From Lysobacteraceae bacterium (lineage in GTDB: Bacteria; Pseudomonadota; Gammaproteobacteria; Cardiobacteriales; Wohlfahrtiimonadaceae), in assembly GCA_012513365.1 (NCBI GenBank), contig JAAZCI010000199.1:1-33595 (forward strand): 33,595 nt of DNA, given 5' to 3'. Made by a program: the position numbers and the translations under genes. A model generated the notes under the pieces. The model made no database searches and was not told the origin of the DNA. It was given only the letters and a program-made list of their open reading frames with translations. The stretch's first letter is position 1. Every line of letters starts with the position of its first letter. Below are positions 30,368 to 33,460 of this stretch, piece by piece.

Positions 30368-31267
30368 TTATTGCGAGAATCCGGGAGCTATTTTCATCGA
30401 TGAAACATTAAAGAGTTCTTTTAAATTATTTAAGCGTAAAGGATATTCACTGGGATTCAAGTCAGCATTTCTTGAGCAATCCACTCTTAGATCAATTAAA
30501 GTAAATCCTAGCAGCGCTTCTGACACAATGATTTCTCTAACACCTAAATCTTTCACACCCAAGTCCAGCATTTGGCTCTCAGGGTGCACAGCTTTAGGGT
30601 GCGGAATTAATTGAGCATGTCGATAACGATTCCAATCATCATCTCGCTCTCTACTGATGCCATGCCCGACTAATAAGGGATCACTCTTGTTGACCTCCAA
30701 TACACGGCTGAATTTAAATGTCTTATAACCTTTTTGAATAATCGCATGACTTAATGGAAAATCGAATGATTCATTCATGTCAGGCACCTCAAATGCTCTG
30801 AAATACCATGAATTTCCTGCTTTAAATAGACTGTGAGGCCTGATGTTTTTCACAGTTTCCCCTGATGAGGTTGAGAAATATTTTATTGTTAACCACTTAT
30901 TATTTACAATTGCTCGTGTAATTTCAGCTGTCAACATCTTGTTTAAGTTTATAAAACTTTTTAAATGTGCATGACCATATCTCTCTACAGGAAGGGCACT
31001 AGATACAACCCCATAAGCAAGATACTGCAAAGCAGATTCAACTGAGTGCGAGTAATGTAACGTGAAACTTTCCGAAATCACATAACCATTGCGTGCTCCC
31101 ATAAAAACCATTTGCTCTGGGTGTTTTTCTATGTAATTAGCAATCAATCGACTCGCCGTCGCCTCACCGATCGAAAAGCGAATCACTAACTCATTTCTAG
31201 TGAGAACGCCCTTAAATAGCAATAAAAACTCTATAAACTGGTATTTTTCTTGTAAACTCGCATCCAT
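30368..31267 (-). CDS. BrxR/CapW-type WYL-domain transcriptional repressor
   Basis: The 299-residue protein has the three-part layout of BrxR/CapW regulators: an N-terminal winged helix (about 8-65, EKYQFIEFLLLFKGVLTRNE with recognition-helix region GEATASRLIANYI), a WYL domain (about 120-200, TIKYFSTSSGE, then IRPHSLFKAGNSWYFRAFE and FDFPLSHAI) and a C-terminal WCX-like domain. In known cases such dimers repress defence operons (BREX, CBASS) and are relieved by a ligand or DNA damage signal bound at the WYL domain. A TTG nine nt upstream (31276) is open, but the ATG at 31267 has GGA at good spacing. It is divergent from the TOPRIM gene, with one palindrome before each gene. Transfer with the locus is suggested by the AT-rich sequence. 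Confidence 0.87.
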   Translation of the reverse strand: MDASLQEKYQFIEFLLLFKGVLTRNELVIRFSIGEATASRLIANYIEKHPEQMVFMGARNGYVISESFTLHYSHSVESALQYLAYGVVSSALPVERYGHAHLKSFINLNKMLTAEITRAIVNNKWLTIKYFSTSSGETVKNIRPHSLFKAGNSWYFRAFEVPDMNESFDFPLSHAIIQKGYKTFKFSRVLEVNKSDPLLVGHGISRERDDDWNRYRHAQLIPHPKAVHPESQMLDLGVKDLGVREIIVSEALLGFTLIDLRVDCSRNADLNPSEYPLRLNNLKELFNVSSMKIAPGFSQ

Positions 31268-31282
31268 ATTTTCCAACTATAA

Positions 31283-31294
31283 TATCAATTGATA
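31283..31294. promoter_or_regulatory. Operator palindrome 1, at the WYL gene
   Basis: TATCAATTGATA is a perfect palindrome (14 bp perfect if extended to ATATCAATTGATAT, 31282-31295). It lies 16 bp before the WYL start codon, just downstream of its candidate -10 elements (TATAAT on the minus strand at 31308-31303 and 31316-31311), as expected for autorepression. Confidence 0.75.
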
Positions 31295-31368
31295 TCTGAA
31301 TAATTATAAGATTATAAAACACAACCATCGTCTTTTCTATAAAAATAAGCGGTTAAGCACAAAAGAGA

Positions 31369-31397
31369 TTGACATATGCGTAAATCATACTCATAAT
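31369..31397 (+). promoter_or_regulatory. Near-consensus sigma-70 promoter of the TOPRIM-SMC unit
   Basis: TTGACA (31369-31374), a 17-nt spacer and CATAAT (31392-31397) make an almost ideal housekeeping promoter. The start point would be near 31404, directly before operator 2, so high basal strength held down by a repressor is likely. Confidence 0.8.
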
Positions 31398-31411
31398 TCT
31401 AAAATCTTTAG

Positions 31412-31423
31412 TATCAAATGATA
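31412..31423. promoter_or_regulatory. Operator palindrome 2, at the TOPRIM-SMC promoter
   Basis: TATCAAATGATA matches operator 1 at 11 of 12 positions and has the same TATCA/TGATA half-sites. It lies about +8 to +19 from the predicted start point and 5 bp before the first ATG, so bound protein would block transcription. Confidence 0.75.
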
Positions 31424-31428
31424 TAGAA

Positions 31429-32229
31429 ATGAAAATGCTTCAGGAATTAGACAATATTAAAAAAGGAAACAGCGTTAATTGGCCAGTCCTTCATAGAAAA
31501 CTATCTCGTTTAAAGATTGATGATTCATTAATTTACCAGGCTATCGCGGTAAAACAGTACAGCGAAACGGCTTATCGAGTTGATATTATTGATCATAATG
31601 CGTTTAATACAATTCTTCAGCGCATTCAACCCATTGATAAAAGCAGTCGGGCCGCAGCTAGCGTAACGGGAGATACACATCAGACGAATGTTAATGGGGC
31701 ATTACTCGTAGCCGTTACGGAGCAATCAAAATCACCATACGTTCATGTTTTCATGAAAAACGCTCTATTACCTCACCCCAAAAAGCAACACGCAATTATT
31801 ATCGAAAACCTCGAGTGTTTCTTAAATTTTAAAGAGATATACCTCTTTATGAAAAATCATTGTCAGATGCCATACAACATGAAAGATATTGAATTCATTT
31901 ACGCTGCGGGCAATAGCATTTCAAATCAAGCTATTATTCCATATTTAAAAGAATTTAAGGGCGATATTTTCTGTCTATTCGATATTGATATCGGTGGGTT
32001 ACAAATTTATAAAAATCTACTCAAGAATGGTTTATCGATCCGTAATACACATTTTGTGATTCCTAATGATATCGAACAACGACTTAAAAAATCTCGACGA
32101 GAAACTAGAAAGTCTGAAATAAACAAACTCAATAATTTTTTAAACATTTCCAAGCAAATTGATCAACTCATTAGGCTAATGCATTATTACCAAACAACCA
32201 TCGAACAGGAGAGTTACCGTGCACAATGA
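31429..32229 (+). CDS. JetD-like TOPRIM-domain protein (putative nuclease subunit)
   Basis: The 266-residue protein has an N-terminal helical, winged-helix-like part (about 1-90) and a C-terminal TOPRIM domain. TOPRIM landmarks are visible: a strand then the conserved glutamate in AIIIENLECFLNF (Glu126), the GNSISNQ turn (about 161-167) and the Asp-x-Asp motif CLFDIDIGGLQIY (Asp185, Asp187). The ENLECF and DIDIGGLQI pair resembles the DUF2220 domain of JetD, the Wadjet nuclease that cuts circular plasmid DNA extruded by its SMC complex. JetD is usually nearer 380-400 residues, so this is a shorter form. It is divergent from the WYL repressor and overlaps the SMC-like gene by 11 nt, indicating coupled translation. 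The start (31429 or 31435) has no strong ribosome-binding site. The nuclease role is inferred. Confidence 0.75.
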   Translation: MKMLQELDNIKKGNSVNWPVLHRKLSRLKIDDSLIYQAIAVKQYSETAYRVDIIDHNAFNTILQRIQPIDKSSRAAASVTGDTHQTNVNGALLVAVTEQSKSPYVHVFMKNALLPHPKKQHAIIIENLECFLNFKEIYLFMKNHCQMPYNMKDIEFIYAAGNSISNQAIIPYLKEFKGDIFCLFDIDIGGLQIYKNLLKNGLSIRNTHFVIPNDIEQRLKKSRRETRKSEINKLNNFLNISKQIDQLIRLMHYYQTTIEQESYRAQ

Positions 32230-33460
32230 TTCATTATCTTTAGATCTACAAAGCCAATATTCCATCAATGAATTAATATTCATTAACTCCGGATCAAACT
32301 ATTATGTGCGGCTCCCTGTCAATCAATCTGCAGCTCTATTTGCGGGGAATAATGAGGGAAAAACCTCCTCTCTATCCGCCCTTAAACTATTTTTATTGCC
32401 CGAGGTGAACTTTAAGGGAAGTGCCGCTAAGTTTAATTTTTCATCTGGGGGAACTCTCTTTTCTAATGAGGCATCCTTTCAATATTATTTCCCGAGCGCT
32501 GAATCATACATTATTTGCGAGGCAGAAAACCCACGCTATCATAACGGTTTTTGTTGGGTTCTATTTAAAAGCACTTATTATCATTATGATCGAATCGCCG
32601 TCCCTCACCCATATGACTATATTGAACATCTATTCTGGAATGCATCATCTCTGCATAATGAAGAGCTTGGCGCATTACATGAAAATATCTCCGTCAAAAC
32701 AATCAAAGAAAAACTATTATCTGAACAGTATGGCGGTAAATTAATTACCGATAAAAAAATGCTTGGAGAAGCCATCTATTCGCGAACAACGGCACAAAAT
32801 GACCATACCCAATTTTGCCTTCTACCCATGGTGCAAAAATCATCTCCTGCCAGTACAAAAATGGTGCGAGCACTACTCGATATGGCGTTTGATTTAAGCA
32901 ATGCATCGACAACATCCCTCCCTATAGCAATTGGTTCTATCATTGATAGTAAAGGATTAAGTGTTGTTAATGACCATGGTATTTTTCTTGATTTAGAAGA
33001 GAAATTAGATGAATGGCGCGAACTGCAAAAAGAACAGATATTTCTTTCTCTTGTAGAGGATAAAAAACCTCAATGGACGCAATTTAACCAAGATTTAGAT
33101 AAATATCGATCCGAGCGCTCAACAACTAAGGATCTTTTTAATCATACTTCTAACTATATAAATAGCGCTTCAAACTTATTGACTCAAGAATTACATCAAT
33201 TACAAGAAAAAGCGGCTCAAGATGAAAAAATATTAAATACCGAGCATCAAAAACTTCGGCAAGTCGAAGACGCCATCACCACACTTAAAGCGCTCACTGC
33301 AAATACAGCGGATGAAATTAAAGAAATTAGCCATAACTTGGCTGAGATTGAGGCCGTAAAGACCGATTATGAGCAACAAAATATATATTCGGTTGAAGAG
33401 ATCATTAAAGACCTTAAACAAAAAGCATCAAGTAATCAAAATAATATAGACGCTCTGTAA
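32219..33460 (+). pseudogene. SMC/JetC-like ATPase, N-terminal fragment cut by an IS
   Basis: The 413-residue remnant starts with a GTG preceded by AGGAG. It has an ABC/SMC-type head half: the P-loop AGNNEGKTSS at 42-51 (Lys48, Thr49), helix LSALKLFLL, then beta-rich sequence to about 165. A long coiled coil follows (from about 260, with KEQIFLSLVEDKK, LLTQELHQLQEKAAQDEKIL and ISHNLAEIEAVKTDYEQQ). The hinge, second coil, signature motif and Walker B are missing: the reading frame runs into an IS3-family left end at 33456, and the stop codon lies inside it. JetC/MksB proteins are about 1,000 residues or more, so well over half is absent. It overlaps the JetD-like gene by 11 nt. Identity as JetC-like rests on the partner and architecture; a RecF- or Rad50-like ATPase is the alternative. 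Confidence 0.72.

What the first reader, a model, noticed from the sequence alone, without database searches (positions are those of the whole stretch)
30368..33460. Wadjet-like TOPRIM + SMC locus with a WYL repressor and non-canonical gene order
A BrxR/CapW-type WYL regulator is divergent from a compact JetD-like TOPRIM protein, which overlaps by 11 nt an SMC/JetC-like ATPase. Known Wadjet loci are jetA-B-C-D, with kleisin (JetA) and KITE (JetB) first and the TOPRIM nuclease last. Here the TOPRIM gene is first, the ATPase second, and no JetA or JetB is visible upstream. That may be a divergent Wadjet/Mks relative with A and B beyond the IS, or a separate reduced TOPRIM+SMC defence system. The WYL partner, the AT-rich sequence and the IS all fit a defence island. 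The family relation is inferred from motifs (ENLECF, DIDIGG, AGNNEGKT and a long coiled coil), not from a database search.
Basis: partly seen in the sequence, partly recalled or inferred. Interest (0 to 1): 0.88.

Follow-up and report, generated by a model that had tools for sequence, protein, structure and literature searches.

The report
Untyped Wadjet-like plasmid defence, D-C-A-B order
The window holds the front half of a bacterial DNA-defence operon related to Wadjet, a DNA-loop motor coupled to a DNA-cutting enzyme that destroys small plasmids; its motor gene is split by a jumping element, and the operon belongs to a widespread compact version that current defence catalogues do not recognise.

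Summary
In detail: a divergent WYL regulator, a 266-aa TOPRIM protein and an SMC-type ATPase overlapping it by 11 nt. The 413-aa ATPase is a fragment: an IS3-like element enters the gene at 33456, and the contig ends inside the IS. The rest of the gene, then a kleisin-like and a KITE (MksE-family) gene, lies on another contig (C213) of the same genome, with a matching 4-bp target duplication (GCTC) and the reading frame kept. A same-species genome has the empty site.

About 30 intact relatives in Gammaproteobacteria share one order, TOPRIM-SMC-kleisin-KITE (D-C-A-B). Sampled classical (type I) Wadjet loci run A-B-C-D. The TOPRIM model matches Top6A and MksG; the kleisin model's three best PDB hits are Wadjet JetA and MukF. 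Metal-site and C-terminal glutamates, Walker and signature motifs are conserved. The TOPRIM lacks about 140 N-terminal residues of JetD, the SMC is shorter, and PADLOC has no specific model. TOPRIM sequences form a strongly supported clade apart from type I.

Verdict: a new, compact variant of Wadjet/MksBEFG, probably plasmid-restricting, IS-disrupted in this genome. It is not a reduced two-gene system. Function is inferred, not tested; the relation to Wadjet type III is unresolved.

The parts
30368..31276 (-). WYL-domain regulator (wHTH + WYL, BrxR/CapW-like), divergent from the operon
   Evidence: Pfam WYL 1e-6 over cut-off; homologues divergent upstream of TOPRIM in about 13 of about 35 related loci
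31282..31295 (.). palindrome ATATCAATTGATAT next to the WYL start: candidate operator 1
   Evidence: perfect 14-bp palindrome; similar (L008) or imperfect (L007 TATTAATTGATA) site at the same place in the two nearest relatives
31369..31397 (+). sigma-70-like promoter TTGACA-17-CATAAT for the TOPRIM operon
   Evidence: read from the sequence; TTGACA conserved in L007 and L008
31412..31423 (.). near-palindrome TATCAAATGATA just before the TOPRIM start: candidate operator 2
   Evidence: same sequence and place in L007 and L008
31429..32229 (+). JetD/MksG-like TOPRIM nuclease subunit (266 aa, compact)
   Evidence: PF09983 over cut-off; AF2 pLDDT 89.9 and Foldseek to Top6A and MksG; E126, D185, D187, E259, E261 conserved
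32219..33455 (+). N-terminal part of the JetC/MksB-like SMC ATPase (Walker A GNNEGKT, start of the coiled coil); interrupted by the IS
   Evidence: 71% identity to intact 985-aa SMCs; continuation on G000:C213
33452..33455 (.). GCTC, left copy of the 4-bp target-site duplication
   Evidence: the same 4 bp follow the right IS end on G000:C213
33456..33595 (+). left end of an IS3-like element (inverted repeat TGTAATCC..., orfA start MKKSKFTDSQIMSILKQNKAGV) running off the contig
   Evidence: same left end at the ends of contigs C131, C90 and C89

Best explanation
The window holds the 5' half of a four-subunit, SMC-based DNA restriction system of the Wadjet/MksBEFG kind, in an untyped lineage with gene order nuclease (D), SMC (C), kleisin (A), KITE (B). 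Likely mechanism: two SMC dimers with kleisin and KITE form an ATP-driven loop extruder; on a small circular DNA, extrusion stalls when the circle is reeled in, and the TOPRIM dimer then cuts the DNA with its metal site (E126, D185/D187) and the C-terminal EQE glutamates, so small plasmids are lost. The WYL protein most likely represses the operon through paired TATCAAWTGATA sites until it is relieved. In this genome an IS3-like element interrupts the SMC gene, so the system is probably inactive here. Shown here: subunit identities, order, conserved active sites, IS interruption, presence/absence in one species. Inferred: loop extrusion, plasmid targeting, WYL repression.
For: Own genome carries the rest of the operon beyond the IS: C213 continues the SMC frame (987 codons with one terminal stop when one GCTC copy is counted), then 471-aa kleisin-like and 201-aa KITE genes. 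C66 and C213 are neighbours by an independent line: a same-species genome has the flanking genes side by side at an empty site. About 30 relatives keep D-C-A-B. KITE: Pfam MksE E=3.5e-13 in L008. Kleisin-like model: top three of 350,542 PDB chains are JetA (8as8), MukF (7nz2) and MukF N-domain (1t98), with winged-helix ends, long helices and a low-confidence linker. TOPRIM model: Top6A and C. glutamicum MksG, prob 1.00. MksG residues tested or discussed in the literature (E236, D279; glutamates E349/E351; PMC10123090) have counterparts here: E126 in 25/25, D185 and D187 in 24/25, E259-Q260-E261 in 24 of 24 aligned. SMC: G47 K48, S876, D909 E910 in 31/31. Profile comparison to type I: TOPRIM 3.5e-5, SMC up to 3e-9.
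Against: No functional assay. The kleisin has no sequence-level match to any known JetA, and its structural E-values are modest (best 1.5e-3, low TM-scores). KITE versus type I JetB is weak by profile (0.005-0.01). The IS junction is inferred across two contigs of a 305-contig assembly with 6.9% estimated contamination. WYL is present in only about a third of loci.
Confidence: 0.8

Rival explanations
1. Same machine, but its main target is phage or conjugative-element DNA rather than small plasmids.
For: Lies in a defence island next to a type I R-M system and a SIR2-like/HerA-like pair; WYL (BrxR-type) partners are reported with many phage-defence systems (PMC9122601); related copies sit on large plasmids of 320 and 599 kb.
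Against: Characterised relatives (type I Wadjet, C. glutamicum MksBEFG) act on plasmids; copies on replicons over 300 kb fit a size-selective anti-plasmid system equally well.
Confidence: 0.25
2. A chromosome-organising Mks condensin that happens to have a nuclease-like neighbour.
For: The KITE hits MksE; MksBEF complexes without nuclease exist.
Against: TOPRIM is always the first gene, overlaps or abuts the SMC and keeps its active site; patchy distribution (4 of 369 and 8 of 398 sampled genomes); empty site in the same species; IS-disrupted here; low GC.
Confidence: 0.08
3. A reduced two-gene TOPRIM+SMC defence system without kleisin and KITE.
For: Only two genes are visible in the window before the contig ends.
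Against: Kleisin-like and KITE genes follow in the same genome and in every intact relative with enough flank.
Confidence: 0.01
4. A divergent member of the already named Wadjet type III rather than a separate type.
For: One relative's TOPRIM (L055) hits PADLOC JetD3 at 1.2e-6; the full-length SMC hits JetC3 at 3.9e-6, over coiled coil.
Against: PADLOC gives no JetA3 or JetB3 match; SMC is about 985 aa against about 1450-1470 positions in the JetC3 models; TOPRIM is about 266 aa against about 346.
Confidence: 0.2

Closest known systems
Wadjet type I (JetABCD) / MksBEFG
   Same: Four subunits: kleisin, KITE, SMC, Top6A-like TOPRIM nuclease; conserved metal site and C-terminal glutamates; operon; accessory distribution
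   Different: Order D-C-A-B instead of A-B-C-D; TOPRIM about 266 aa against about 400 (about 140 N-terminal residues missing); SMC about 985 aa against about 1120-1230; kleisin unrecognisable by sequence; separate clade
Wadjet type II (DUF2397/2398/2399)
   Same: Same subunit logic
   Different: SMC 1392 aa and JetD2 447 aa in the one locus sampled (L142), order A ... C-D
Untyped DUF3584 loci (L138-L141, L143)
   Same: Short TOPRIM of about 290 aa, an SMC that groups nearest in the SMC tree, divergent WYL in L141
   Different: Order SMC, about 215 aa, about 410 aa, TOPRIM; SMC about 1225 aa
MukBEF
   Same: Kleisin-like model resembles MukF; KITE and SMC logic
   Different: No nuclease in MukBEF
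Lamassu (LmuA/B/C)
   Same: SMC-like ATPase coupled to an effector; LmuB model hits the coiled coil (1.3e-6)
   Different: From established knowledge, Lamassu has no kleisin or KITE and a different effector

Membership tests
Wadjet / MksBEFG | TOPRIM nuclease of the JetD/MksG (Top6A) fold with acidic metal site | tested here: met
   PF09983 over cut-off; Foldseek Top6A and MksG prob 1.00; E126, D185, D187, E259, E261 conserved
Wadjet / MksBEFG | SMC ATPase with Walker A, signature and Walker B plus long coiled coil | tested here: met
   intact relatives and C213; profile match to type I JetC up to 3e-9
Wadjet / MksBEFG | Kleisin subunit (JetA/MksF) | tested here: met
   by structure only: best PDB matches 8as8 JetA, 7nz2 and 1t98 MukF, modest E-values; no sequence match
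Wadjet / MksBEFG | KITE subunit (JetB/MksE) | tested here: met
   Pfam MksE 3.5e-13 and 6.6e-10, over cut-off, in L008 and L007
Wadjet / MksBEFG | All four genes in one operon | tested here: met
   about 30 loci; own genome across the IS
Wadjet type I | Order jetA-B-C-D | tested here: not met
   D-C-A-B in every intact locus; type I loci sampled here are A-B-C-D
Wadjet type I | Full-length JetD (DUF3322 N-terminal part + C-terminal TOPRIM, about 400 aa) | tested here: not met
   266 aa; global profile alignment starts at JetD column 141
Wadjet type I | Recognised by PADLOC JetA1/B1/C1/D1 models | tested here: not met
   only a weak JetD1 hit (1.7e-5; 5.9e-4); none for A or B; no JetC1
Wadjet type III | Recognised by the four PADLOC type III models | tested here: inconclusive
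   weak JetC3 and JetD3 hits only; no type III locus sampled
Wadjet | Restriction of small circular plasmids | not testable with these tools
   needs a transformation assay
BrxR/CapW WYL regulators | wHTH + WYL, divergent from a defence operon, palindromic operator | tested here: inconclusive
   WYL domain and divergent position met; candidate operators found; DNA binding untested

The most novel reading that the evidence does not exclude
D-C-A-B loci, perhaps with the related DUF3584 loci ordered SMC-KITE?-kleisin?-TOPRIM, form new Wadjet types in which a compact nuclease without the N-terminal extension of JetD is controlled by the SMC motor in a different way from type I, for example without autoinhibition by elongated CAP arms, or with a different plasmid-size limit set by the shorter SMC arms.
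Probability: 0.35. Interest if true: 0.75.

Novelty: new variant of a known kind. Interest (0 to 1): 0.6.

Why it matters
Nearly all mechanistic work on Wadjet concerns type I (stated in PMC10586767). A separate compact lineage, present in roughly 1-2% of the Gammaproteobacteria and Pseudomonadota genomes sampled here and missed by PADLOC, gives a natural test of which parts of JetD and which SMC arm length are needed to sense and cut small circles. It also means defence catalogues under-count SMC-based plasmid defence in marine and animal-associated bacteria. The strain pair (IS-disrupted operon in one genome, empty site in the other) shows recent gain or loss of the system.

Tried and rejected
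PDB sequence-profile searches with all four families gave no true relatives; SMC hits were coiled-coil noise. Pfam KIF21A, EF1G, WSN, ERO1 and similar hits were set aside as coiled-coil or chance. An SMC alignment of 15 diverse members was too divergent for the collection scan; a six-member subset worked. The phage collection gave no match. A two-gene system and a chromosome-condensin role were considered and rejected or ranked low. Persicobacter L011 was at first a candidate relative, but its KITE-like gene precedes the SMC, so it was not counted as D-C-A-B. The founding Wadjet paper was sought (PMC6387622) but is not held, so published type II/III gene orders could not be checked. Literature searches for 'type IV' Wadjet or another order found none.

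Full report
1. Observation. The 302-aa minus-strand ORF has a WYL domain (Pfam 1e-6). The 266-aa ORF passes the Pfam cut-off for JetD_C, 'Wadjet protein JetD, C-terminal' (4e-5). The next ORF overlaps it by 11 nt and starts with GTG behind CAGGAGAG. The 413-aa 'ATPase' is only the first part of a gene: from 33456 the sequence is the left end of an IS3-like element, and the contig (the whole window is contig C66 of a 305-contig assembly) ends inside it; the same IS end closes contigs C131, C90 and C89. GC of the cassette is 36.0%, against 45.6% in window 1-30338.

2. The other half is in the same genome. A search with Pfam DUF3584 rang on contig C213 of the window's own genome. C213 opens with the right end of an IS of the same kind (inverted repeat TGTAATCCTCCC..., against TGTAATCCCCCC... 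on the left), followed by GCTC, the same four bases that precede the left end at 33452-33455, and then the missing 3' part of the SMC gene. Counting one GCTC, the frame runs on without an internal stop for 987 codons. Then come a 471-aa ORF, a 201-aa ORF, and, on the other strand, a 260-aa metallopeptidase-like gene and hsdR. In a same-species genome (G002) the 338-aa gene that flanks the cassette in the window and the 260-aa gene that flanks it on C213 stand side by side, 47 bp apart. This independently shows that C66 and C213 are neighbours and that the cassette is a discrete presence/absence unit.

3. Relatives. Two whole genomes of the same family carry the intact operon. Wider profile searches found it in 4 of 369 and 8 of 398 sampled genomes, the window's own included, all hits being in the same class; on two large plasmids, Methylophaga thalassica 320 kb and Photobacterium damselae 599 kb, where the four genes are annotated as hypothetical proteins; and at 28 named genome loci, among them Wohlfahrtiimonas, Marinobacter, Halomonas, Endozoicomonas, Colwellia, Shewanella, Paraglaciecola, Pseudidiomarina and Acinetobacter. 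In every locus where all four genes lie on the held DNA, about 30 after removing duplicates, the order is TOPRIM, SMC, about 465-aa, about 190-aa, on one strand. Exceptions are damaged or extended loci: L038 (TOPRIM split by another gene), L018 and L061 (broken SMC), L034 (TOPRIM alone), L009 (two extra genes between SMC and the third gene). A divergent WYL gene lies next to the TOPRIM in about 13 loci.

4. Identity of the subunits. TOPRIM: AlphaFold2 on the window protein with 24 relatives gave mean pLDDT 89.9; its only PDB matches below E 0.001 are Top6A (2zbk, 9o8p) and the C. glutamicum MksG nuclease (8b7f), each with probability 1.00, although TM-scores are modest (0.38-0.45). MksG E236 and D279 are needed for cleavage, and glutamates E349/E351 are discussed as alternative nucleophiles (PMC10123090); by alignment these correspond to E126, D185/D187 and E259/E261 here, conserved in 24-25 of 25 sequences. 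The correspondence of D279 to D185 rather than D187 is my reading. SMC: Walker A, signature and Walker B residues are invariant or nearly so in 31 sequences. Third gene: no convincing sequence match anywhere, but the model has a winged-helix-like N-terminus, long helices, a low-confidence linker (303-375) and a helix-plus-hairpin C-terminus, and its three best hits in the PDB are E. coli JetA, MukF and the MukF N-terminal domain, with PA14 JetA at rank 11. E-values are modest, so the kleisin call rests on rank, architecture and operon context together. Fourth gene: Pfam MksE, well above cut-off in L008 and L007.

5. Comparison with known Wadjet. JetD_C loci sampled in the class include type I loci by PADLOC, with kleisin, KITE, SMC and JetD in A-B-C-D order wherever all four were visible, JetD about 375-470 aa and SMC about 1120-1230 aa. 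One type II locus has JetA2 ... JetC2-JetD2. Profile comparison of the present family with type I gives significant but distant matches for TOPRIM (3.5e-5 to 3.6e-4) and SMC (up to 3e-9), weak for KITE and none for kleisin; type I subgroups compared with each other score far better for TOPRIM and KITE. A global alignment places the compact TOPRIM on JetD columns 141-419, so about 140 N-terminal residues are missing. In trees, the D-C-A-B TOPRIMs form one group with 100/99 support and the SMCs one with 88/82, both apart from type I; several branches are long, so deeper joins are unsure. PADLOC and NCBIfam have no model that recognises the operon.

6. How it most likely works (inferred from type I Wadjet and MksBEFG). 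SMC, kleisin and KITE form a loop-extruding motor that senses small circular DNA when extrusion stalls, and the TOPRIM dimer then cuts it. The WYL gene and the operon are divergent; a TTGACA-17-CATAAT promoter at 31369-31397 is followed by TATCAAATGATA five bases before the TOPRIM start, and a second palindrome lies before the WYL start; the TOPRIM-side site is identical, and the WYL-side site similar, in both near relatives. A WYL repressor acting on both promoters is the simplest reading and is untested. In this genome the IS almost certainly disables the SMC, hence the system.

7. What is not settled. Type III Wadjet was not sampled, and the original paper is not held, so I cannot say that D-C-A-B is absent from every named type. 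Anti-plasmid action is inferred. The IS junction spans two contigs, and the assembly has an estimated 6.9% contamination, though the same-species synteny makes a mix-up unlikely.

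Noticed in passing
L138, L139, L140, L141, L143: DUF3584 SMC loci with the order SMC (about 1225 aa), about 215 aa, about 410 aa, TOPRIM (about 290 aa), not typed by PADLOC; L141 has a divergent WYL gene. They look like a second untyped Wadjet-like arrangement (C-B-A-D); the two middle genes were not verified as KITE and kleisin.
   Followed up: partly
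L134:3877-9000 and L164 (G000:C213); L163 (G002): Next to the cassette is a type I R-M locus whose hsdS-hsdR gap holds a SIR2-like plus HerA-like pair in this strain and a nucleotidyltransferase-like gene with two others in the same-species genome: a strain-variable defence cargo slot (names from the sequences, no family search run).
   Followed up: partly
L163:11117-11163: Same-species genome G002 has the empty site of the WYL-DCAB cassette (47 bp between the flanking genes).
   Followed up: yes
L009:8938-9712: Photobacterium damselae plasmid locus has two extra genes (one annotated DUF5406) between SMC and kleisin.
   Followed up: no
L034:6615-7502: TOPRIM homologue without adjacent SMC, kleisin or KITE genes: orphan or remnant.
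   Followed up: no
L038:7491-9942: TOPRIM gene split by a 357-aa minus-strand ORF, a second interrupted copy of the system.
   Followed up: no
L109:1842-9239: Locus in canonical A-B-C-D order with a JetA not recognised by PADLOC and a very long branch in both trees: another possible divergent Wadjet.
   Followed up: no
window:33456-33595: IS3-like element present in at least four places of this genome, breaking the assembly at each.
   Followed up: partly
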